A DNA stretch of 64,000 nucleotides, from contig JAJTBZ010000042.1 in the NCBI GenBank assembly GCA_021286645.1, positions 1-64,000 on the forward strand, in the 5' to 3' direction. The notes beneath the pieces are model-generated. The model was given only the letters and a program-made list of their open reading frames with translations, ran no database searches and was not told where the DNA came from. The DNA comes from Ignavibacteria bacterium. Lineage in GTDB: Bacteria; Bacteroidota; Ignavibacteria; Ignavibacteriales; Ignavibacteriaceae. Position numbers and translations under genes: made by a program. How positions within the stretch are numbered: position 1 is the first letter of the stretch; each line of letters starts with the position of its first letter. This document shows positions 46,463 to 64,000 of the stretch, piece after piece.

Positions 46463-49132
46463 ATGAAACGCAGCTATTTCAAAAATTCTTTTCTTCCTTT
46501 CACTCTTTTCCTTTTTTCTCTTATTGGTATGTTCTTGTTTGTAATATTGGAACATGAGCCGCGACAGGGCGCTGAATCTGAAGAGCCATTGGAAGAAACA
46601 ATGGGTGGAAGGGACAACCCTGAAGCCGCGATGGAGTATCGATATGCAATGCTTGCCGGACCTACCGGTGAACTTGATCCAATGGCAAGAATGAAGGCTA
46701 TTTCATTTGCTGAGGCAAATAATCTCGCCCGAACGGAAAAAACAGGAACTGATTTAACCTGGCAGCCGGTTGGACCAGGAAATATAGGCGGTAGAATACG
46801 TTCCATTATCATTAATCCGGATAATACAAACCAATTACTCATAGGAGCCGTGTCAGGAGGAGTATGGAAAAGTACGAATAAAGGCGTTACCTGGTTACCT
46901 AAACTCGATAATGGTCCTTTCCCTTCTATTGGTTCAATGGTAATTGACCCCAATGCGCATAGTACAGTTTATGCAGGTACGGGTGAGGGGTGGCGCAATG
47001 CAGATGCTATTTACGGCGGTGGAATTTACAAGTCAACCGATTTCGGCGAAACCTGGAATATTCTTACTTCCACTACAGGCACCTGGGATTTTAAAAACGT
47101 TCTAAAAATAGTAGTAGATGCGAATAGTAACATATATGCCATAACAAGAGCTTCCAATAAAAAACATGGTGTGGGTTCGTATCTGACCAATGGCGGCCTT
47201 TTCCGTTCGACCAATGGGGGAGATTCCTGGACGAAAATCAATCCTTCAACTTCTACGGATAACTATTACAATCCCAATGATCTGCTTGTCCTTGCACCCG
47301 GCGTGCTGTTATTCACTACGGGACCTGTAACCAATCCCGGAAGTATGTATAAATCAACTGACGACGGCGTCACATGGAAAAAGATAACTACAGGACTGCC
47401 TACAGCTAATTATGATCGTATTGCTATGGCAAAGGATCCATCAAATGCTAATAGACTATTTGCAGTTTTTGGTTCTTCTAATACTGCATCTCCATATTTC
47501 GGTTTGGAAAACATCTATAAATCGACTGATGCCGGTGAAAGCTGGACTGCGGTTACCCGGCCCCCGAACTTAGCCTCAACAAGTAATTTATCGTATTTGA
47601 GTGCTCAGGAATGGTATGATAACGTGATTGCGATAGATCCGTTTAATTCCAACAGGATCGTTGTCGGCGGTGTGGACCTGGTTGCTAGTACTGATGGCGG
47701 AACTACATGGAGCCAGTTGACATATTGGCATCTTTATTACGGCAGCCCGTTTGTTCATGCTGATCATCATGCACTGGTCTTTGATCCGGTTACTTCCGGT
47801 ATTTTATACTCGGGCAATGATGGAGGAATTTATCGTACTACTAATTCAGGAAGTACCTGGACTGCATTAAATAACGGTTTGGCGATCACTCAGTTTTACG
47901 GCGGTGCTGTTTCGAAAACCGGTACGATGTATACGGGGGGAACTCAGGATAATGGGCATTTGAAATATGGGGGAAGCGGCACTACATGGGTAACAGTAAA
48001 TGGAGGAGATGGTGGTTACGCCGCGATAGATCAAAGCAACTCCAATGTTGGATATGGTGAATACGTGTATTTGCAAATGGGAAAAACCACCGATGGCGGC
48101 ACTTCCTTCGAAAGCTGCACTACGGGATTAACCGATGCCGGTTCATCTACATTATGTTTGTTTATATCTCCTTTTGCTATTAATACGGTTAATGCCAATA
48201 TTCTTATCGCGGGTTCAGATAAGATCTGGCTGACTACAGATGCTGCTAAAACCTGGAACCCGATGTGTTCTACGTTGGTGACAGGTAAACTGGTCAGCGC
48301 GGTTGCAATTCAGAGCTCCGGTAGTAATTATCTTGCATTTGCCGGAATAACCGGCGGGCAGATATTTAAATGTTCAGGGTTGAACCCAACCCTAGGGCAG
48401 GCAAATGTATGGGTAAATATTTCTCCCGCGAATAATAATGGGGCTTATGTCCGGCGTGTAGTTATTGACCCTGCCGATACAAATATTATTTATGCCTGCT
48501 ACGGTGGGTATAATAACTCAGCAATTCAGAAACACGTATGGCGTTCAACCAATCAGGGCAGCTCATGGGCTGATATATCAGGAAACTTGCCAGACGTCCC
48601 CGTCCATTCACTAATTGTTAACCCGACAAACAGACAGAATCTTTTTGTAAGTACTGAGACAGGTATTTTCCAAACAACCGATTTAGGTACTACCTGGGTT
48701 TTGGCTACGACCGGTATGCCTAAATATGCTCCTGTTGACGAAATTGTATTGCAATCGGGTACTAATAAATTATTTGCATTTACTCACGGTCGAAGTGTGT
48801 TTCAGGCAGATATGCCCGTGAGTGTTAAACAAGGAACCGGAACCACGGCAAAAGACTACCGCTTAATGCAAAACTACCCGAATCCGTTTAATCCTTCAAC
48901 AACCATTAGTTATTTCCTCGCATCGGCAGGCAATACCAGCCTGATACTATATGATATCCGTGGTAAGCAGGTAGCAAGCCTCGTAAATTGTTTTCAACAG
49001 GCAGGCAGTCATGAAGTCAGATTCGATTTCCGTAATGTTGCTGCAGGAAAAGGATTCCCAAGCGGTGTATATATTTATGAATTAAAATCAGGGAATTACC
49101 GCGAATCGAAAAAAATGAATTTGATTAAGTAA
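46463..49132 (+). CDS. Secreted BNR/sialidase-like beta-propeller protein with T9SS sorting domain
   Basis: This 889-residue protein has an N-terminal membrane or signal segment (FLPFTLFLFSLIGMFLFVI). Many propeller blades of BNR/VPS10 type follow (VWKSTNKGVTW, IYKSTDFGETW, MYKSTDDGVTW, VASTDGGTTWSQL, VWRSTNQGSSW). The C-terminal type IX sorting domain begins with YRLMQNYPNPFNPSTTI and ends ESKKMNLIK. Such proteins are exported by type IX secretion and anchored or released at the surface; the cargo role could be adhesion or glycan binding. No catalytic Asp box set is claimed. ATG 46463 has GGAG 9 bases upstream. Confidence 0.88.
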   Translation: MKRSYFKNSFLPFTLFLFSLIGMFLFVILEHEPRQGAESEEPLEETMGGRDNPEAAMEYRYAMLAGPTGELDPMARMKAISFAEANNLARTEKTGTDLTWQPVGPGNIGGRIRSIIINPDNTNQLLIGAVSGGVWKSTNKGVTWLPKLDNGPFPSIGSMVIDPNAHSTVYAGTGEGWRNADAIYGGGIYKSTDFGETWNILTSTTGTWDFKNVLKIVVDANSNIYAITRASNKKHGVGSYLTNGGLFRSTNGGDSWTKINPSTSTDNYYNPNDLLVLAPGVLLFTTGPVTNPGSMYKSTDDGVTWKKITTGLPTANYDRIAMAKDPSNANRLFAVFGSSNTASPYFGLENIYKSTDAGESWTAVTRPPNLASTSNLSYLSAQEWYDNVIAIDPFNSNRIVVGGVDLVASTDGGTTWSQLTYWHLYYGSPFVHADHHALVFDPVTSGILYSGNDGGIYRTTNSGSTWTALNNGLAITQFYGGAVSKTGTMYTGGTQDNGHLKYGGSGTTWVTVNGGDGGYAAIDQSNSNVGYGEYVYLQMGKTTDGGTSFESCTTGLTDAGSSTLCLFISPFAINTVNANILIAGSDKIWLTTDAAKTWNPMCSTLVTGKLVSAVAIQSSGSNYLAFAGITGGQIFKCSGLNPTLGQANVWVNISPANNNGAYVRRVVIDPADTNIIYACYGGYNNSAIQKHVWRSTNQGSSWADISGNLPDVPVHSLIVNPTNRQNLFVSTETGIFQTTDLGTTWVLATTGMPKYAPVDEIVLQSGTNKLFAFTHGRSVFQADMPVSVKQGTGTTAKDYRLMQNYPNPFNPSTTISYFLASAGNTSLILYDIRGKQVASLVNCFQQAGSHEVRFDFRNVAAGKGFPSGVYIYELKSGNYRESKKMNLIK

Positions 49133-49190: not shown

Positions 49191-52127
49191 TTAATAATTA
49201 TCCGGCCTTCTGCTACTGATGTAATTATATGAATTATTATCCACAATTATCATATCGAGAAAATCTACGCTCCCATCACCATTAACATCTGTCGAAAGGT
49301 ATCCGGCAGCATAGTTATATGAATCATTATCAAGAATGCACATGTCGGTAAAATCTATTGATCCATCCTGGTTTACATCGCCACTGTAAATGCAATATAC
49401 AGTATTGTGAATTATTAGATTGCTCCCATAAGCTTTTGATACGGAACTCGAAAAGTCATAACTCTGGTACCCGTCTTTCAAATATGAATTTCCTGAAATC
49501 TTACTCCATGTTTCAAGAATATTTCTTCCGCGAATTACCAGGTAATATGTACCCGAGGGTGCGATTCCAAAGATTCCCATTGCGGTAAAAGTAGCAGAGT
49601 CTAATACAGCGGTACATGAATCTACCAGAGAATAAGGCGCTGTTGTATTGGCAAGATACAACTTGAATGTATCCCGTATTGATAACGTCTTTGTCCCAAT
49701 ATCGTAATAACCTTCAGGTATAAATTTTACAAGGTAATTGCCACCATTGGAAAGGTATTTAAGGCTTTTCCCGATGATCATTTGGAAAGCGGAATCATTT
49801 GCAGTCGTTTCCAGAGGGAAACCCAGGTAGATTAGCCTACCCGTTTTCGCTGAAGTACCAAATTTTCCGGTATATGCAATTCCGGCACCTTTGGAATTGT
49901 CGTACTTAAGGCATGCTACAGCCCCTCCGGAAGCATTTATCTCATCAGGTGTAGGTACTGCATAGGTTTGCCCAAAATTCAGCGTACACCCGTCAAATAT
50001 TCCACCTGTTACCCCTGAGGCAGTAAGTGAGGCCGCATCATCATTCATGTAAACTGCCTTCAAATAGTTCGTGTAAAACTGTTTATCCGAAGTGCTTCCT
50101 TTTTCATATAAATCATAACCTATCTCGCTGCCAGAAACAAATAATGAACCGCCATTTTCCAGATATTGCTTAACCAAAACCTGTTCCTTATCCGAGAATG
50201 TGGCATTTGCAGTACTTTCATCACCTAAAAGCCATATCACCGCGTCATATTGTAAAAGATTAATACCCGTGAGTAACTCCGAATTTCGAACGGAATCAAA
50301 TCGCTTCTTCCATGCTTTAAGGGCTTTCATATACATAACCGGGCCTTCATTGCTAGGTCCTCTCCAGTTACCCGTTAATCGGGTAAATCCATCAACAAGC
50401 AGGATTTTTTTTGGAGATGAATATTGCGAATAACTCAAAACGTTTGACCAAAAACTTTCTGAATAAGTTGGCGCGTCGTTTTTTACCGAACTTATTCTGT
50501 AGGCTGCAGCACTATCGGTAAGCGGGATATCGATAGTTAAATTCTTTAATGTAGTTTCGTTCTTCAACAATGCCCAGTTAGTTCCGTCAGTTGATTTATA
50601 CAAACGAAAACCTTTAAGACCGGAAGTATCACATGTCCAATTTAATCGTATGATATTGCCGGGTTGAATGAGTACTCGCTGCATAACAGGAATTACTCCG
50701 TTATAGCCGGTTGACATGTTCTTAAAAACATACGGTGCATATATTGTTAAATCGGAAAGGGCATAGGTCCAATATGAAACGCCCCAATCTCTGCCGGAAG
50801 ATTCTACTACCTTCACCGCCCCCGTGCTTGTTCGTTCAACAAACATTCTCACATGACCGTCACGCAATACCGCGTCTGCAGGGCGCAATGAATCCCATGA
50901 AGCCAACAGTTTACATGTATCGGGTAAATCAGCGGTAACTATATGAGAACTTAGGCCCCAACATTTACTCAGGAAACCTGAACAATCAACTCCCACGGCA
51001 TAACTTGAAGAAGAATTGCAATCGATATCACCGGCGTATTTACTGGAACTGAGGCCCGCATCAAATGTTGATAATGTCATAAACCCTCCCCATTTATAGG
51101 GGATTTCGGCATTGGCGCCTACAACTAACCGAGGCGGAGTCTGTATAGTATCCCCATCAGCAGCTCGTACTTTTGAAGGGGCCAGATTCGATGCTGTACA
51201 TGTGTATCGGTGATTTACATATGTTTCCCCGGTTCGAAGAGCGGTAGCCCGATCGGCTACGGCAGAAATGCCTTTATCATAAGCTGAACGTTTTTCGGGC
51301 TGTACTGGTAAAAAATTATAATGAAATGGTTTTTCAAATTCTTCAGGTAATTTTTCAATGGACCCGGATTTGATTTTTGCAGTTTCCCATTTAATTATCT
51401 TCGTAGATTCGTTGTCACTAAGGAATTGGTAAATATTTCCTTCTGCATCAACTTCAAATTCTTTAATTATGGCAATATATTTTTGGAGTGGAACGGCAAT
51501 TTTCTTTTTGATTTGGCCCTCAGGTGAGAATATGATAATACTTCTCGAAACTTCCATCGGCACTTGACGTGTTATCTCCTCAATAATCAGGTAAATATTA
51601 TTTTCTGAATCATTCCCGATAAAATCGGCATAACCTAAATTACCCTTGAAAGATACAGTATAAGACAGGGCAGTATTAAAAGAAGAAGTATTGACCGTCA
51701 ACAGGGACGAGTTTTCTCTTCGCACTGATAGGATCGTGCCATTTCGGAATTGGTATTTACCATCCTCCAACCATTCAACAGGTTCTCTATTCTTTGCAGA
51801 ATACCGTGAGGGTTGTACCAAATTCTGATTGCGGGTATAGGTATATGAATCGCGTTGTGAGGGGTTATTATCGCTCATATTTTTATTCTCAATGAGTGAA
51901 AAATTCCCATCACGATAAGAATAAATTTCTTTTTTATCGTGCATCAGTAGCTGCAGGGAAGAATCTGTTACACTAAATCCCGCGATACCGTAAACACCGC
52001 TATTATCAGAGCGCAATCTGATAGGGAGCCGTGAATGCGGCAGTTTATATACAATTGTATAAGGTACTTGTCCGGAAAGTAGCATTGTATAGCCGAATAA
52101 AATAATAAAGAGGAATTTTTTTTTCAT
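49191..52127 (-). CDS. Large secreted protein: NlpC/P60-like domain, FnIII-like domain, amidotransferase-like domain, dockerin repeats
   Basis: The 978-residue protein has a signal peptide (FLFIILFGYTMLLSGQ) and a beta-rich N-terminal region. An NlpC/P60-like papain-fold domain follows at about 325-465, with VGVDCSGFLSKCWG giving a putative nucleophile Cys and DGHVRMFV a putative His. A fibronectin-like segment comes next (about 490-575), then a glutamine-amidotransferase-like fold (LLVDGFTRLTGNW, VKQYLENGGSLFVSGSEIGYDL). Two dockerin-type calcium loops close it (DVNQDGSIDFTD and DVNGDGSVDFLD). It is probably a cell-wall or surface hydrolase attached through dockerin. The cohesin partner is not in the window. 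It converges on the T9SS propeller gene. Confidence 0.82.
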   Translation of the reverse strand: MKKKFLFIILFGYTMLLSGQVPYTIVYKLPHSRLPIRLRSDNSGVYGIAGFSVTDSSLQLLMHDKKEIYSYRDGNFSLIENKNMSDNNPSQRDSYTYTRNQNLVQPSRYSAKNREPVEWLEDGKYQFRNGTILSVRRENSSLLTVNTSSFNTALSYTVSFKGNLGYADFIGNDSENNIYLIIEEITRQVPMEVSRSIIIFSPEGQIKKKIAVPLQKYIAIIKEFEVDAEGNIYQFLSDNESTKIIKWETAKIKSGSIEKLPEEFEKPFHYNFLPVQPEKRSAYDKGISAVADRATALRTGETYVNHRYTCTASNLAPSKVRAADGDTIQTPPRLVVGANAEIPYKWGGFMTLSTFDAGLSSSKYAGDIDCNSSSSYAVGVDCSGFLSKCWGLSSHIVTADLPDTCKLLASWDSLRPADAVLRDGHVRMFVERTSTGAVKVVESSGRDWGVSYWTYALSDLTIYAPYVFKNMSTGYNGVIPVMQRVLIQPGNIIRLNWTCDTSGLKGFRLYKSTDGTNWALLKNETTLKNLTIDIPLTDSAAAYRISSVKNDAPTYSESFWSNVLSYSQYSSPKKILLVDGFTRLTGNWRGPSNEGPVMYMKALKAWKKRFDSVRNSELLTGINLLQYDAVIWLLGDESTANATFSDKEQVLVKQYLENGGSLFVSGSEIGYDLYEKGSTSDKQFYTNYLKAVYMNDDAASLTASGVTGGIFDGCTLNFGQTYAVPTPDEINASGGAVACLKYDNSKGAGIAYTGKFGTSAKTGRLIYLGFPLETTANDSAFQMIIGKSLKYLSNGGNYLVKFIPEGYYDIGTKTLSIRDTFKLYLANTTAPYSLVDSCTAVLDSATFTAMGIFGIAPSGTYYLVIRGRNILETWSKISGNSYLKDGYQSYDFSSSVSKAYGSNLIIHNTVYCIYSGDVNQDGSIDFTDMCILDNDSYNYAAGYLSTDVNGDGSVDFLDMIIVDNNSYNYISSRRPDNY

Positions 52128-58727: not shown

Positions 58728-59468
58728 TTAGAAAGTTGTATTGTCAACTTTTTTATTGTATAACCATTTCAGAATAACCCAGGCTGGTTTACCGGTAGAT
58801 CCGCCACCACGCGATGTAACGATGATCTTTGAATAATGTTTATCCTGATCATACGCGAATACATAATTACCGGGAGTATCTGAAAAACGATCTGTCCATG
58901 AAGCATCTTTAACCGATGAAGCAACTCCATCTGTTAAGCTGGCAGCAGCACCAACTTTAAACCAGGTTGTTCTGGTTAATTTATTGCTGGCTGTAATCAT
59001 CTTATAGTAATCTGATGAGTAGAATAAATCTACTGTTGAAGTATTTGCTGAACTTACACTTAAAACAGTTCCTAAATTAAGCGATAAGCCACTCTTGCCT
59101 GAAGAATTATATTCCCAGATTGTGTCTGAGGTAAAAGTAACGATCCAGCCGCTTAAAGTCTGTTTCAAGGTATCAAGCTGGTTCTCTCTCGGGGTGTAAG
59201 CTGTCAACGCAACTGAATCATATGCAGTTAATGTGAACGCAAAATTGTATGTTCTTGATACATCAAGAGAATCAATTCTTACGGGGGTTACATATGATGT
59301 TAATACACCGTTCATCCAAACATGAGCACCAACAGGTGTTGTGCTGAGGTAAACACTGCCATACTTTGTTGTAGCTGCTACCGGGTTGTCTGTACTATCA
59401 CTACAACCGGCAAAGAAAGAGAGAGCTAAAAGCAGAACAGGTACTGCAATTAAACTGATTTTTTTCAT
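58728..59468 (-). CDS. PEGA-domain lipoprotein
   Basis: This 246-residue protein has a lipobox (FFAGC, Cys at about residue 22) and a PEGA domain (GSVYLSTTPVGAHVWMNGVLT, about 37-57, with TPVRIDSLDVSRTYNFAFTL). A C-terminal beta-rich domain of unknown type follows. It is anchored in the outer or inner membrane facing the periplasm. Function is unknown. It lies 31 bp after another lipoprotein gene in the same direction and is closed by a terminator. Confidence 0.8.
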   Translation of the reverse strand: MKKISLIAVPVLLLALSFFAGCSDSTDNPVAATTKYGSVYLSTTPVGAHVWMNGVLTSYVTPVRIDSLDVSRTYNFAFTLTAYDSVALTAYTPRENQLDTLKQTLSGWIVTFTSDTIWEYNSSGKSGLSLNLGTVLSVSSANTSTVDLFYSSDYYKMITASNKLTRTTWFKVGAAASLTDGVASSVKDASWTDRFSDTPGNYVFAYDQDKHYSKIIVTSRGGGSTGKPAWVILKWLYNKKVDNTTF

Positions 59469-59499: not shown

Positions 59500-59982
59500 T
59501 TATTTCTTTTTCAATGAGAACTTAACTTTAATATTATCGACTGTAAGCGTAAAGGTTCCACTCATCGTCTTGAATTCTTTATCGAATGATCCGGCATAAG
59601 TACCGGCAGATCTCATGTGAATCATATCTTTCATTGTGAATGTAAGTTTTTCTTTATCAAACTTACCTGAAACTTCTTGTTTAATTTCATCTCTTTGCTT
59701 TATATGGATCTTTCCAGAGAACTGGTTGCCATCGACTTTCGTGATTGTTAATGTTGCCGGACTAATATCCATCTTACCGGTCCACTCGCCCTTTAGGTCA
59801 ATTGAAGCTTCCGGTTTTGCAGCTGGTTCAACTTTTTTTGCCGTATCAACTTTTGCAGGTGCCGGTTGAGTGGTTTCTTCTTTCACTACTGGTTGCTCTT
59901 GTTTTTTCTGGCAGCCGCTAATAATAAGTCCACTTAGAATAAGAACTGATAATAACATGACAAACAAACGGGAATGTTTCAT
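59500..59982 (-). CDS. Hypothetical lipoprotein
   Basis: The 160-residue protein has a lipobox signal (LIISGC), a proline/alanine/lysine-rich linker (about 27-62) and a beta-rich C-terminal domain (LKGEWTGKMDISPATLTITK, QFSGKIHIKQ, TYAGSFDKEFKTMSGTF) that resembles lipocalin-like or binding folds. No known function. The start ATG 59982 is preceded by an excellent ribosome-binding site (AGGAGG, five bases upstream), so it is probably well expressed. Confidence 0.78.
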   Translation of the reverse strand: MKHSRLFVMLLSVLILSGLIISGCQKKQEQPVVKEETTQPAPAKVDTAKKVEPAAKPEASIDLKGEWTGKMDISPATLTITKVDGNQFSGKIHIKQRDEIKQEVSGKFDKEKLTFTMKDMIHMRSAGTYAGSFDKEFKTMSGTFTLTVDNIKVKFSLKKK

Positions 59983-60156: not shown

Positions 60157-61437
60157 TTATTGCAACCAGGAATAAATTGTATAGTTATTCGCGTCGGGAT
60201 AACCGGGAGGAACTGTTGTGAGCAGCCGCTGATCATACTTTTGTACGTAACGATAACCGGCAGTTAATCCTGAATTGGTTGTTGGATACAGGTTCTTTTG
60301 GGCTACACCGCCTAATAAGTTCATGTTCCAAATCCCAGAGTAACTCGCGTAACTATTTATCGTGAGTCCGTCATTTTTACAGAGAATACTACCCTGAATT
60401 GCAATATTACCACGGCTATTATTGAAAGTTACTTCGAGCCGGTTTTCACAAATAAGTCCTAATTGATCAGTTGAAGTAGTTACCGTGCGCGGATCATCGA
60501 CATACGTTATGCTATTATCTACGAAGATATTTCCAAATTTTGCTCCTGCGCCAATTCCTCCGGTAGCATTTCCGGTACTATCCACCAGAGCACACAAAGT
60601 ACATCTGCCGTCTAATTGCCCCCTGATAATAAAATTACCTCGATATGCTGCTATTACACCGTTAGGGGCCAGGGTTGAGATGGCAGAAGTAGTAGTAGCG
60701 CTCCAGCCTGACCAGGTTGTTCCGTCAGCACTAATCTGGGTTTTGTAGGTTACTGTTGCATCAGCATTAAAAGTCATGTCCACGTTAACATAAGGTTTTG
60801 AAACATTATTAGCTCTGAACACATAACCATTAAGCTTGGCTAAACTTGCAGTTGAGCCAATATTGGGTGTAAACGCAATATCGATACCGGAAGCATAGCC
60901 GCCGAGTAATTGGGGAGTACTGGATGAAGGGCTTTTATTAATACCGCTTTTACAAGTTACCCTGCCAAGAAATACAGGGCTTCCGGTAACAGGCAGTGAA
61001 GTTACCGCATGGCACGGACCGTCAATAGTATCACCCGTAGCAAAATACGCGCTGGAAGCGGCATTAAAACTGCCATACTTGGCATAATTATTCATCTTCA
61101 GCCGTACAACTATTGTATCGGTGTACCCATTAAAAGTACCAATACCGGTAAATTTTACGAATGTTGTTGTATATAATGTGTCATTGGTAACCAATACTTG
61201 CATTGTTCCGCCGGCAACCGAAGTTGTGGGAACACCATCGCGCCAGTTAGGAGTAAAGGCAATTGCACTATTGGCAATATTAATTCCCGATAATGCATTA
61301 TTTTCTGCCATACACTGGCAATAATATTGAGTATAGTAATCTACGGTCTGTGTTGCGGTTACAACCATATTTCCTGTATAAACAAGAAATATGGAACTGA
61401 ATCCCAAAACCAAAAATAGTGATGCTCTGCCAAACAT
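60157..61437 (-). CDS. Large pilin-like protein with minimal MFG leader and DUF4900-like body
   Basis: The 426-residue protein starts MFGRASLFLVLGFSSIFLVYTG, a hydrophobic helix directly after three residues. An exterior domain with Cys pairs follows. Its body, with TGDTIDGPCHAVTSL, GSPVFLGRVTCKSGI and the final NNYTIYSWLQ, resembles the DUF4900 type found in FCB pilin clusters. I infer a pilus-tip or minor-pilin function. It is last of three minus-strand genes with three bases between it and the previous stop, so it is cotranscribed. No known sorting signal is seen. Confidence 0.6.
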   Translation of the reverse strand: MFGRASLFLVLGFSSIFLVYTGNMVVTATQTVDYYTQYYCQCMAENNALSGINIANSAIAFTPNWRDGVPTTSVAGGTMQVLVTNDTLYTTTFVKFTGIGTFNGYTDTIVVRLKMNNYAKYGSFNAASSAYFATGDTIDGPCHAVTSLPVTGSPVFLGRVTCKSGINKSPSSSTPQLLGGYASGIDIAFTPNIGSTASLAKLNGYVFRANNVSKPYVNVDMTFNADATVTYKTQISADGTTWSGWSATTTSAISTLAPNGVIAAYRGNFIIRGQLDGRCTLCALVDSTGNATGGIGAGAKFGNIFVDNSITYVDDPRTVTTSTDQLGLICENRLEVTFNNSRGNIAIQGSILCKNDGLTINSYASYSGIWNMNLLGGVAQKNLYPTTNSGLTAGYRYVQKYDQRLLTTVPPGYPDANNYTIYSWLQ

Positions 61438-61440
61438 AAT

Positions 61441-62076
61441 TTATTTATTCAAATTTCTTGCTATAAGGGTAATCTGCCGCCAATACACCTGGGCATATTT
61501 TTTCCTGTCGCTGGCAGAGAATTGTTCATTATACGAATCTCCGCTTTCTAAACGAATTGCTACCTGAATTGAGGCAATTTGTCCGGAAGTACCGGCAGCA
61601 CTGCTCATTGGAGTCGCCAGTGTATCGTTGAGAGAGTTCATATATAAAAATCTGAACTGCGTAACACCTGTTTCCAATGCTATCGGCGTCTGGTTATTAA
61701 CCCTCCGATAAAGAATCCTGTCGTTGGGATTTGTTGTAGAAGATAACTCACTCGTTGCCCCGAGATAATAGGCGATAGTGTCTGTTTTTGAAGAGTTCGT
61801 TGCATCTACATCGCCAACAAGTGTTAAAGCGCTGGTATCAGCCAGGGGAATGGCATTGCTTTGTGGAGAGATCGGGCCTCCTTTGGTATATGCAATACGC
61901 TTAATATCGCGTTCGAGAATCTGAACATCCTGAAATAGCTGTCGTTGCAGTAAGAAGTCAACATTGTAGAATTGGGCATTCATTACTACATTGTAATTCA
62001 CCTGCTTAAGCGAAAGTAAAAGAATTCCGCCGATAAACATTGAACCCAAAATATCTAATATAGTTGTATATCCCAT
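61441..62076 (-). CDS. PilW-like minor pilin with minimal MG leader
   Basis: The 211-residue protein begins MGYTTILDILGSMFIGGILLLSLKQ, a hydrophobic N-terminal helix with no charged leader, then a helical stalk (NVDFLLQRQLFQDVQILERDIKRIAYTKGG, about 42-70) and a beta-rich C-terminal domain. This is the type IV minor pilin/pseudopilin (PilW/GspJ-like) plan. The conserved Glu5 of mature pilins is missing, although an Asp is at residue 8. It lies three bases after the 62571 gene's stop and four before the next gene. Confidence 0.65.
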   Translation of the reverse strand: MGYTTILDILGSMFIGGILLLSLKQVNYNVVMNAQFYNVDFLLQRQLFQDVQILERDIKRIAYTKGGPISPQSNAIPLADTSALTLVGDVDATNSSKTDTIAYYLGATSELSSTTNPNDRILYRRVNNQTPIALETGVTQFRFLYMNSLNDTLATPMSSAAGTSGQIASIQVAIRLESGDSYNEQFSASDRKKYAQVYWRQITLIARNLNK

Positions 62077-62079
62077 AAT

Positions 62080-62571
62080 CTATTGAAAAGGCCAATATGA
62101 ACAAATAGTACTCATCGATATAGTATCGCGCATATACGGGGAAGTAACCCTGACAATTACTTTTTTATGTAAAGTTTTTGTAGTTGTAATTACGTCTGGT
62201 GTCGAAGGGTTAACGTATCCAACAGTCATTGATATATCAAAAGGAGCAGAATTTTGTACGGAATCCCGGGCGGTAAAACCATTGTAATCATCGCAATCGT
62301 CAAATGTAGTTTCAGTGGTTTCTCCCGATTCTTTCCCCATGGTAGTCGACATGCCGGAAGCCGAGGTTTGTTGGGCAAGTACGGTATTTTCATCGAAAGA
62401 AAGGCGGATAGCCTGCTGTAATTTAGAATTGGCAATAGAAACCGCCAGCAGGGCATACTTCGAATTTTGTGTTGTATCCTGCGTTGTGAGCAAAGTGCTG
62501 TTTACCCGTGTTGTTATCATTGTTAACAACATCATTGCTATCAGCCCAAATAGAGATTGACCAGTACCCAT
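62080..62571 (-). CDS. Minor pilin-like protein with minimal MG leader
   Basis: This 163-residue protein begins MGTGQSLFGLIAMMLLTMITT and continues as a long helix (NSTLLTTQDTTQNSKYALLAVSIANSKLQQAIR, with FDENTV), then a small beta domain with two Cys. The start resembles prepilins, but the leader is only MG or MGTG and Glu5 is absent. It is the first gene of the three-gene minus-strand operon, so promoter elements should lie in the region above 62571. Confidence 0.65.
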   Translation of the reverse strand: MGTGQSLFGLIAMMLLTMITTRVNSTLLTTQDTTQNSKYALLAVSIANSKLQQAIRLSFDENTVLAQQTSASGMSTTMGKESGETTETTFDDCDDYNGFTARDSVQNSAPFDISMTVGYVNPSTPDVITTTKTLHKKVIVRVTSPYMRDTISMSTICSYWPFQ

Positions 62572-62842
62572 GAGTATTCCAAGTAATCTTTAGTCTTAAA
62601 CTTACAATAATAAAAAAATATCTTTAATAATAATTACTATTCCAAAAATTATTCCAGCATGCTTTATATCACAAAGCAGTAGGTATTAAAAAGTGACTCT
62701 CTATAAATATAGATGTTTTTATAAGCTATAAATATTATTAATTCTGTCCAATATACCCTTTTCGGGGGGAAGATAAATCTGTTGGAAACAAATTTGCTAT
62801 AAATATCAGGCATACACTTAATTGAAGGATGGGCAAATGTTG

Positions 62843-62935
62843 CCGGGGAAATCCGGGAAATCGGTAAATATTACCGGTAAAAAATACCGGATATCGTAGT
62901 TTCGGAAAATTTTACCGATAAGATATCGGTAGATT
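62843..62935. promoter_or_regulatory. Iterated CGG-AAAT motifs and palindromes, possible enhancer-binding site
   Basis: The direct repeats CCGGGGAAAT, CCGGGAAAT and CGGTAAAT at 62843-62869 are followed by palindromes. CGGTAA pairs with TTACCG (62862-62867 with 62871-62876), CCGGTA with TACCGG (62874-62879 with 62885-62890), and TACCGATA with TATCGGTA (62913-62920 with 62924-62931). A further CGGAAAAT is at 62903-62910. The array sits 170-262 bp upstream of the candidate sigma-54 promoter, the range used by NtrC-type activators, and could serve both directions. Confidence 0.45.
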
Positions 62936-63104
62936 CATCAATTTTTGTTGTTCACATTCTTGTGCAGGGGAACTCACGATCGGAAGGGATTAATTGTAAT
63001 AATGTGAAAAATGTGCGATTATTGCCTGAATTACGTTTGTTCCAATATTTTTGACTATCGGAATTTTCAAAATTTTTGAAAAGATACCATAGCTGAAAAT
63101 TTTT

Positions 63105-63120
63105 TGGCACGCCACTTGTA
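63105..63120 (+). promoter_or_regulatory. Sigma-54-like promoter of the first pilin gene
   Basis: TGGCACGCCACTTGTA matches the sigma-54 -24/-12 consensus TGGCACG-N4-TTGCA with one difference (TTGT for TTGC) and the required spacing (10 bases between GG and GT). It ends 60 bp before the start codon. A TATAAT overlaps at 63119-63124 but lacks a -35 partner. Pilin genes are often sigma-54-controlled. The activator is unknown and not in this window. Confidence 0.5.
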
Positions 63121-63179
63121 TAATACTGACAAAACATTAAAACAACACATCATTAACAATATCTTAGAAAGGATCTGTC

Positions 63180-63569
63180 ATGGGTCAACAACAATTGCTC
63201 CTCATCGTTCTCGGCGTTATTATCGTTGGTATCGCTATCGTAGTTGGTATTAACTTATTCCAGGCTAGTGCTGTAGATGCAAACAGAAACGCAGTTATAG
63301 CTGATTTGAATAACTTAGCTTCAATGTCTCAGCAGTATTACAAAAAACCTACCTCATTAGGCGGCGGCGGAAACTCATTTGTTGGTTTTGCAATTCCTAC
63401 TGGTTTAGGTTCAAATGCTAACGGTACTTATACTATTAGCACTGCCGGTACAGCTACCCAGATCGTATTCCAGGGTACAGGTACAGAAAATGGTGATAAC
63501 GGAACCTCAGGTGTTCAGCACCGTGCAACGGTTACCGCAACAGCAATTACAATTGCAAAAGTTAACTAA
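63180..63569 (+). CDS. Major pilin-like protein with minimal MG leader
   Basis: The 129-residue protein begins MGQQQLLLIVLGVIIVGIAI, a pilin-type hydrophobic helix with no leader peptide beyond MG. It then has a stalk (NLFQASAVDANRNAVIADLNNLASMSQQYYKKP) and a Gly-, Thr- and Ser-rich beta region. Its size suits a major pilin. Mature Glu5 is replaced by Leu, as in atypical pilins. If a peptidase cuts after Gly2, the mature start would be Gln. AAAGGAT precedes ATG 63180. A terminator follows, so it can be expressed separately from its downstream paralog. Confidence 0.72.
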   Translation: MGQQQLLLIVLGVIIVGIAIVVGINLFQASAVDANRNAVIADLNNLASMSQQYYKKPTSLGGGGNSFVGFAIPTGLGSNANGTYTISTAGTATQIVFQGTGTENGDNGTSGVQHRATVTATAITIAKVN

Positions 63570-63590
63570 ACTGAGTTAACATAAATTTTT

Positions 63591-63619
63591 AACCTGCCGG
63601 CTTCGCCGGCAGGTTCGTT
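63591..63619 (+). terminator. Terminator after the first pilin gene
   Basis: A GC-rich 11-bp perfect stem (63591-63601 with 63605-63615, arm AACCTGCCGGC) with loop TTC is followed by CGTTTT. It lies 21 bp after the stop, so transcription is at least partly stopped before the second pilin gene. Confidence 0.85.
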
Positions 63620-63689
63620 TTAAGGCTATTTGTTCTGATTTTATTGTGAAAATGAATTTTTATTGCGGTCTTATAAAATTTGGACGAAT

Positions 63690-63697
63690 TATATTTG
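63690..63697 (+). promoter_or_regulatory. Possible Bacteroidota-type -10 element of the second pilin gene
   Basis: TATATTTG at 63690-63697 matches the Bacteroidota -7 consensus TAnnTTTG and lies 79 bp before the start codon of the second pilin gene. No well-spaced TTTG -33 partner is visible, so support is weak. It would explain expression beyond the terminator. Confidence 0.3.
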
Positions 63698-63730
63698 TTC
63701 TGCAATGTATTAAAAATAGAGTATGAGAAA

Positions 63731-63761
63731 GCCGGTTTGTAAATAAAACAGCGAACCGGGC
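63731..63761 (+). promoter_or_regulatory. Leader hairpin just before the second pilin gene's ribosome-binding site
   Basis: CCGGTTTGT (63732-63740) pairs with GCGAACCGG (63751-63759), counting G-U pairs, around the ten-base loop AAATAAAACA. The ribosome-binding site GGAG and ATG 63776 follow within about 17 bases. It may protect the message or affect initiation; a regulatory role is inferred only from position. Confidence 0.4.
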
Positions 63762-63775
63762 TGAAAGAAGGAGAA

Positions 63776-64000
63776 ATGGGTCAACAACAATTGTTATTAA
63801 TAGTATTGGGAGTTATTATCGTTGGTTTGGCAATAGTTGTAGGTATTAACTTGTTTAAGGCAAGTGCTATTGAGGCCAATAGAAATGCAGTCATCGCTGA
63901 TTTAAATAACCTTGCGGCAATGGCGCAGCAGTATTATAAAAAACCTGCCAGCTTAGGCGGCGGTGGCAACTCGTTTGTAGGGTATGCACTGGCAACCGGT
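63776..64000 (+). CDS. Second major pilin-like protein, cut by the window end
   Basis: The first 75 residues are visible, starting MGQQQLLLIVLGVIIVGLAI. By my count 65 of 75 residues match the upstream pilin, with differences such as Gln28Lys and Phe70Tyr, yet the codons are widely different. The second gene uses mostly AT-ending codons in the helix (TTG TTA TTA ATA), whereas the first uses CTC, ATC and GGC. It has its own ribosome-binding site (AAGGAG) right before ATG 63776. The C-terminal part lies outside the window. Confidence 0.7.
   Translation, partial: MGQQQLLLIVLGVIIVGLAIVVGINLFKASAIEANRNAVIADLNNLAAMAQQYYKKPASLGGGGNSFVGYALATG

What the first reader, a model, noticed from the sequence alone, without database searches (positions are those of the whole stretch)
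60157..64000. Five consecutive pilin-like proteins with almost no leader peptide
The sequence shows that each begins M(F)G and goes straight into a membrane helix: MFGRASLFLVLG, MGYTTILDILG, MGTGQSLFGLIA, and MGQQQLLLIVLG twice. The helices line up so that Gly or Ala falls at residue 11 or 12. Established type IV prepilins carry a positively charged leader, a G|F/M cleavage site and Glu5; none is present here. Two have a G|Q junction, like archaeal class III signals. The genes form divergent blocks of minor (PilW-like, DUF4900-like) and major pilins. I infer a filament or secretion system with minimal two- or three-residue leaders, or one that skips cleavage.
Basis: partly seen in the sequence, partly recalled or inferred. 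Interest (0 to 1): 0.8.

Follow-up and report, generated by a model that had tools for sequence, protein, structure and literature searches.

The report
Type IV pili made without leader-peptide cutting
These genes encode the subunits of a retractable bacterial filament (a type IV pilus) whose proteins start right where the mature subunit would begin, in bacteria that mostly lack the trimming enzyme that textbooks call indispensable, so a supposedly universal step of pilus making seems to have been deleted across a large bacterial group.

Summary
The window holds three minor-pilin-like genes and the first of three (not two) MGQQQ major pilins. Just past its end lie PilC, PilB, PilT, PilM/N-like, PilO-like and secretin genes, in an order kept in dozens of relatives. 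Leaders are truly absent: for all six proteins the start is the most upstream possible, and in 82 major-pilin genes an in-frame stop lies a median of 4 codons upstream. In 197 genomes of the class, the leaderless pilin and the PilC platform occur together in 103; 95 of those lack the prepilin peptidase. The eight with a peptidase nearly all carry a separate classical system. The family recurs in other classes of the phylum and in Calditrichota and KSB1 records. AlphaFold gives a pilin-like lollipop for the major subunit, and the second minor pilin matches T2SS minor pseudopilins structurally, with an Asp exactly where classical pilins have Glu5. Best reading: a T4aP-like retractable filament that dispensed with leader peptide and prepilin peptidase. 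[quoted passage not shown] this fits that gap. I found no prior description. Filament formation and mature N-termini remain untested.

The parts
60157..61437 (-). Minor pilin A (426 aa), large putative tip subunit, GspK-like by position and size; MFGRASLFLVLG, DUF4900-like stretch
   Evidence: ORF; PF16241 E=4.4e-4, below cut-off; 8 of 20 relatives match DUF4900; K/R in residues 2-5 in 21/21, no D/E in residues 1-20
61441..62076 (-). Minor pilin B (211 aa), GspJ/PilW-like; MGYTTILDILGSMFIGG with Asp8 = Glu5-equivalent
   Evidence: AlphaFold pLDDT 82.8, helix 2-59 plus beta sheet; Foldseek top 3 = T2SS minor pseudopilins XcpV/XcpW complex entries, prob 1.00, E 3e-3 to 8e-3; PRK10557, E=0.003; Asp-x8-Gly register of E5-G14
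62080..62571 (-). Minor pilin C (163 aa), GspI-like by position and size; MGTGQSLFGLIAMMLL
   Evidence: family of 23 leaderless homologues in relatives; no database match, so the GspI label rests on order and size only
63180..63569 (+). Major pilin 1 (129 aa), leaderless; MGQQQLLLIVLGVIIVG
   Evidence: AlphaFold pLDDT 89.6, helix 3-55 plus four strands
63776..64000 (+). Major pilin 2, start (runs to contig position 64165), 90% identical to pilin 1; a third copy lies at contig 64358-64750

Best explanation
This is a type IVa-like, retractable pilus whose major and minor pilins have lost the leader peptide and which works without a prepilin peptidase. SHOWN by sequence: translation starts at, or about two residues before, the position that is residue 1 of a mature classical pilin; PilC, two ATPases (PilB and PilT), PilM/N-like, PilO-like and secretin genes are syntenic; A24 peptidase and N-methyl pilins are absent from most genomes that have the system. 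INFERRED: the pilin enters the inner membrane through SRP/Sec as an uncleaved N-in signal anchor; methionine aminopeptidase removes Met1 of the major pilin (invariant Gly2), giving the short free N-terminus that PilD would otherwise make; a tip complex of the three minor pilins (I-J-K-like) starts assembly; PilB/PilC extrude the filament through the secretin and PilT retracts it. In the tip, the invariant Lys/Arg of minor A and the conserved Asp of minor B may replace the usual N-terminal-amine to Glu5 bond.
For: Machinery downstream: PF00482 E=4e-28, PF00437 E=1e-99 and 2e-33, PF00263 E=2e-23; NCBIfam best matches PilB 410 bits and pilT_fam 309 bits. Synteny in 79 loci: PilC 67, PilB 62, PilT 49, PilMN 46, PilOP 42, secretin 38, many loci being cut by contig ends. 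Leaders absent in 82 genes and also in the relatives of all three minors. Peptidase PF01478: own genome best E=0.6 with stops inside; 8/197 class genomes, all 8 also having the leaderless pilin, 7 of them also a strongly scoring classical PilC and all 8 an N-methyl pilin. Co-occurrence pilin-PilC 103/3/3/88, Fisher p=4e-48; 95 of the 103 without peptidase. Single-contig genomes (G032, G113, G119, G149, G161, G176, G180) have the pilin and no PF01478 match. 39 of 50 genomes behind named records lack it, including the Ignavibacterium chromosome CP070637 and Stygiobacter electus. Phylum sample: 102 of 115 with the pilin lack it. PF06750 agrees. Positive control: classical pilins in the same class have readable leaders (nearest upstream start 5-38 residues before the Gly). 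Pilin folds. Conservation is highest in residues 1-24 (mean top-residue frequency 0.90 against 0.48-0.63 later), as expected of a filament core and not of a discarded signal. Asp-x8-Gly in 18 of 19 Asp-bearing minor B proteins matches E5-G14.
Against: No experiment shows a filament. The major-pilin model has no significant Foldseek match (type IV pilins appear only at E 4-5), and sequence profiles match Geobacter PilA-N only weakly (E=0.14) and classical pilins of the class barely. The register of the major pilin against classical pilins is uncertain by two residues. PilM/N and PilO assignments rest on order, size and a weak match. A highly divergent peptidase outside PF01478/PF06750 cannot be excluded by profiles. 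Met removal does not suit every minor pilin (second residue N, Q, F or H in several).
Confidence: 0.83

Rival explanations
1. A minimal two- or three-residue leader (MG, MFG, MN) is still cut off by a dedicated peptidase that is not of the A24 family, so processing remains but with a new enzyme.
For: Gly2 is invariant in 104/104 major pilins, like Gly-1 of classical prepilins; with G17 aligned to G14 the major pilin would begin up to three residues before classical residue 1.
Against: No conserved enzyme gene lies in the syntenic block. Residue 2 of the minors varies widely (G, N, Q, H, F, S, T, A, E, D), unlike a protease site. In 13 of 20 minor B proteins Met1 itself falls at -1, leaving nothing else to cut. 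Methionine aminopeptidase already explains loss of Met before Gly (established knowledge).
Confidence: 0.09
2. The hydrophobic segment is a signal peptide cut by signal peptidase I after the small-x-small stretch (ASA, ANA, SNA at residues 29-31), and the products are secreted or periplasmic proteins, not pilins.
For: Residues 29-31 are often small-x-small.
Against: The segment is the most conserved part of the protein, unlike signal peptides; it is about 22 residues long and uncharged; AlphaFold continues one helix from residue 3 to 55 straight through the putative site; minor B matches pseudopilins structurally; the genes are bound to pilus machinery.
Confidence: 0.03
3. The machine is a type II secretion-like pseudopilus, or a membrane complex, rather than a surface pilus (still leaderless).
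For: The three minors resemble the GspI-J-K set in order and size, and minor B is closest to GspJ-type proteins. The literature notes that the so-called T2SS of Bacteroidetes (Cytophaga) clusters with T4aP (PMC6668835).
Against: A PilT-family second ATPase sits in the operon, up to eleven major-pilin matches occur per genome, and conserved minor pilins also prime T4aP (PMC10191384). No GspC/GspL/GspM family was matched.
Confidence: 0.15
4. Artefact: wrong start codons, or a peptidase missed through assembly gaps.
For: The genome is a 108-contig draft.
Against: In-frame stops close upstream in 82 genes across many genera; peptidase absent in seven single-contig genomes while 12 of 14 control genomes ring.
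Confidence: 0.02

Closest known systems
Type IVa pilus (T4aP; PilA, PilB, PilC, PilT, PilMNOP, PilQ, PilD)
   Same: Two ATPases of PilB and PilT type, PilC platform, secretin, PilM/N-like and PilO-like genes in a cluster; pilin-like fold with long N-terminal helix
   Different: No leader peptide, no Glu5 in the major pilin, no prepilin peptidase or N-methyltransferase in most genomes, PilM and PilN apparently fused, secretin only 426 aa
Type II secretion minor pseudopilins GspI-GspJ-GspK (XcpVWX tip complex)
   Same: Three consecutive minor genes of rising size; minor B model matches entries 5bw0, 6utu and 9a1f; largest minor lacks an acidic residue near the N-terminus, as the cap subunit lacks Glu5 (PMC10191384)
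   Different: No leaders; minor A carries an invariant Lys/Arg near the N-terminus; no sequence-level family match
Geobacter PilA-N (geopilin domain 1)
   Same: Only solved pilin that the major-pilin profile finds, aligning the hydrophobic helix
   Different: E=0.14-0.35 only; Geobacter pilin has a leader, Glu5 and a peptidase (established knowledge)
MSHA-type pili and Nanoarchaeota filaments
   Same: Loci or phyla reported without a prepilin peptidase (PMC6668835, PMC4471445)
   Different: MSHA loci are thought to borrow a peptidase from another system in the genome; here most genomes have none and the pilins have no leader

Membership tests
Type IV filament superfamily / T4aP | Extension ATPase of PilB/GspE type | tested here: met
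   PF00437 E=1.3e-99; TIGR02538 PilB 410 bits, below that model's cut-off of 676
Type IV filament superfamily / T4aP | Platform protein PilC/GspF | tested here: met
   PF00482 E=4.1e-28, two stretches, over cut-off
Type IV filament superfamily / T4aP | Retraction ATPase PilT | tested here: met
   Best NCBIfam match TIGR01420 pilT_fam 309.4 bits against a cut-off of 319.1; PF00437 over cut-off
Type IV filament superfamily / T4aP | Outer-membrane secretin | tested here: met
   PF00263 E=1.8e-23 over cut-off
Type IV filament superfamily / T4aP | PilM, PilN, PilO, PilP alignment complex | tested here: inconclusive
   511-aa protein with weak Amuc_1101 (PilM-like) match E=1e-4 and a 296-aa membrane protein in the right order
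Type IV filament superfamily / T4aP | Class III signal peptide: hydrophilic leader ending in Gly/Ala | tested here: not met
   No leader of classical length possible in nearly all of 82 major-pilin genes; PF07963 has no match in the genome
Type IV filament superfamily / T4aP | Prepilin peptidase in the genome | tested here: not met
   PF01478 none in the window's genome and in 95 of 103 class genomes with pilin and PilC
Type IV filament superfamily / T4aP | Glu5 in the major pilin | tested here: not met
   No D/E in residues 1-24 of 104 major pilins; the literature says 'often, but not always' (PMC10191384); Asp equivalent kept in minor B
Type IV filament superfamily / T4aP | Lollipop pilin fold (long helix plus antiparallel sheet) | tested here: met
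   AlphaFold pLDDT 89.6 and 82.8; Foldseek supports minor B but not significantly the major pilin
Type IV filament superfamily / T4aP | Forms a surface filament that retracts | not testable with these tools
   Needs microscopy
Type II secretion system | GspC, GspL, GspM present and PilT absent | tested here: not met
   PilT-family ATPase present, no GspC/L/M family match among the operon proteins

The most novel reading that the evidence does not exclude
A whole lineage of type IV pili, spread through Ignavibacteria and other classes of the same phylum plus Calditrichota and KSB1, has abolished the leader peptide, prepilin peptidase and N-methylation, with translation starting at the mature N-terminus and methionine aminopeptidase as the only processing step; in the tip, a Lys/Arg on the cap subunit and an Asp on its neighbour replace the N-terminus to Glu5 bond.
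Probability: 0.7. Interest if true: 0.88.

Novelty: new variant of a known kind. Interest (0 to 1): 0.8.

Why it matters
Prepilin processing is described as a required step of type IV filament biogenesis; reviews treat leader peptide and prepilin peptidase as defining (PMC4471445, PMC10191384). A widespread system that does without both would separate what assembly needs (a short free N-terminus at the membrane face) from how it is usually made, would bear on why pilins are N-methylated, and would mean that pilus-finding programs that look for the class III signal miss such pili throughout these phyla. [quoted passage not shown]

Tried and rejected
Annotation error of start codons: rejected. 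Missed peptidase through draft assembly: rejected by single-contig genomes and controls. Archaeal-type class III signal with G|Q junction: not needed; Gly2-Gln3 is conserved, but no peptidase exists in most genomes. Signal peptidase I cleavage: unlikely. Foldseek of the major pilin against PDB and viral libraries gave nothing significant; profile comparison with classical pilins was too weak to prove homology. Profiles of minors A and C against PDB gave nothing; minor B found only a Thermus type IV-like pilin at E=0.1. Literature searches for MGQQQ, leaderless type IV pilins, absent prepilin peptidase, and Ignavibacteria/Kryptonia pilins found no description; one search was uninformative.
Full report
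1. The observation. The window lies on the first contig (93,880 bases) of a 3.72-Mb, 108-contig assembly, 99% complete. Reading past the window end adds a third MGQQQ gene at contig 64358-64750.

2. What lies next to them. Straight after the third major pilin come PilC/GspF (64909-66285; PF00482 E=4e-28), PilB (66286-68076; PF00437 E=1e-99, NCBIfam PilB 410 bits), a PilT-family ATPase (68088-69317; 309 bits), a 511-aa protein with a weak PilM-like match and a membrane segment (PilM-PilN fusion by inference), a 296-aa PilO-like membrane protein, and a 426-aa secretin (71764-73044; PF00263 E=2e-23).

3. The leaders are really missing. The ORF listing reports the most upstream start after an in-frame stop, so none of the six proteins can be extended with ATG, GTG or TTG. 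A scan of GTDB genomes with the three pilins found 442 confirmed stretches, of which 79 loci were kept: Ignavibacteria, Melioribacter, Stygiobacter, Kryptonia, Calditrichota and KSB1 by record title. Of the 82 genes examined, 81 start with ATG, usually behind a clear AGGAG-type site, with an in-frame stop a median of 4 codons upstream (60 within 5 codons, 80 within 14) and one alternative start in all. The three minor families in those relatives start in the same way. By contrast, the few classical pilins in the same class have their nearest start 5-38 residues before the cleavage Gly, so leaders are visible when they exist.

4. The peptidase is missing. PF01478 (prepilin peptidase) has no credible match in this genome (best E=0.6, with stops inside), nor has PF07963 (N-methyl pilin motif) or PF06750. 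Over 197 genomes of the class, 106 have the leaderless pilin, 106 have PilC, and 103 have both (Fisher p=4e-48), but only 8 have PF01478. All 8 have an N-methyl pilin, and 7 of the 8 have a strongly scoring classical PilC; in G019, G106, G109 and G124 the peptidase, classical PilC and N-methyl pilin lie on the same contig within about 16 kb. The PilC of such classical systems scores 72-96 bits against the window's PilC, whereas the last-ranked platforms from leaderless loci still score 378-431 bits. So the peptidase tracks a second system. Single-contig genomes G032, G113, G119, G149, G161, G176 and G180 have the leaderless pilin and no PF01478 match. Of 50 genomes behind named records, 39 lack the peptidase, including the Ignavibacterium chromosome CP070637 and Stygiobacter electus. 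In a phylum-wide sample of 346 genomes, 115 have the pilin and 102 of those lack the peptidase; 29 have the peptidase but no such pilin. Loci taken from eleven genomes of other classes again show MGQQQ starts, most of them beside PilC, PilB and PilT.

5. They look like pilins. AlphaFold with 104 homologues gives the major pilin one helix from residue 3 to 55 and a four-stranded sheet, pLDDT 89.6. Foldseek finds no significant match for it, and the profile's only pilin hits among solved structures are three weak ones to Geobacter PilA-N (E 0.14-0.35). Minor B models well (pLDDT 82.8, helix 2-59), and its three best Foldseek hits are entries of the T2SS minor pseudopilin complex of Pseudomonas (5bw0, 6utu, 9a1f; probability 1.00, E 3e-3 to 8e-3), with the next hit at probability 0.05. 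Minor B keeps an Asp followed nine residues later by Gly in 18 of 19 Asp-bearing members, the spacing of Glu5 and Gly14 in classical pilins (established knowledge); the profile alignment, weak in itself, puts Asp8 on Glu5 and Gly17 on Gly14. With that register Met1 falls at -1 in 13 of 20 members and at -3 in 6: the protein begins at, or two residues before, the point where PilD would cut. The minor genes C, B, A have the order and rising size of gspI, gspJ, gspK; A has no acidic residue in its first 20 positions, like the cap subunit that lacks Glu5 (PMC10191384), but an invariant Lys/Arg within residues 2-5.

6. Why not a cleaved signal. Residues 1-24 of the major pilin are its most conserved part (mean top-residue frequency 0.90, against 0.48-0.63 elsewhere), uncharged in 104 of 104. 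Signal peptides are not conserved in that way; a helix packed in a filament core would be.

7. Mechanism. Shown: gene content, synteny, absent leaders, absent peptidase. Inferred: SRP/Sec insertion as an uncleaved N-in anchor, removal of Met1 by methionine aminopeptidase (Gly2 is a preferred context, established knowledge), tip-first assembly from minors C, B and A, extrusion by PilB/PilC through the secretin, retraction by PilT. The charged pair Lys/Arg(A) and Asp(B) as a stand-in for the N-terminus to Glu5 bond is a proposal only.

8. Known or new. Reviews describe the leader and its peptidase as general to type IV filaments (PMC4471445, PMC10191384); MSHA loci without peptidase are explained by borrowing (PMC6668835). 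The Melioribacter roseus genome paper found pilT, pilQ, pilB and pilC but not pilA or pilD (PMC3534657), which this system would explain. No paper found in the held library names these pilins; subscription papers and preprints were not searchable. By the membership rules the system shares the core machinery of type IV filaments but fails two defining tests (class III signal, prepilin peptidase), so I call it a leaderless variant related to T4aP rather than a plain member.

Noticed in passing
window 58728-59468 and 59500-59982, minus strand: Two small putative lipoproteins (lipobox-like LSFFAGC, LIISGC) just beyond the minor pilins; homologues of both sit beside the pilin locus in L011, L027 and L029, so they may be accessory pilus proteins.
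   Followed up: partly
contig C1 73050-78158 (L001:13050-18158): Response regulators, a hybrid histidine kinase and an NtrC-type regulator follow the secretin gene, possibly a PilS/PilR-like control of the pilus.
   Followed up: no
window 46463-49132 and 49191-52127: A sortilin/BNR-repeat protein with a type IX secretion C-terminal sorting domain next to a 978-aa protein with a type I dockerin match.
   Followed up: no
G019:C16, G106:C7, G109:C38, G124:C13: A minority of genomes carry a second, classical type IV/T2SS-like system with its own prepilin peptidase and N-methyl pilins beside the leaderless one: a natural control for any experiment.
   Followed up: partly
phylum sample, family f33 (about 2-3 Mb genomes): A family of the same phylum has the prepilin peptidase but no leaderless pilin, so leader loss does not cover the whole phylum.
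   Followed up: no
L086 (record titled Patescibacteria, JAHISB010000030.1): An MGQQQ pilin in a 1.2-Mb genome titled Patescibacteria that also has an A24 peptidase and classical pilins, without the other leaderless genes beside it: transfer or binning error.
   Followed up: no
G007:C35:60580-60984: One major-pilin match begins at profile position 10 inside a 249-aa open frame, possibly a longer or fused pilin.
   Followed up: no
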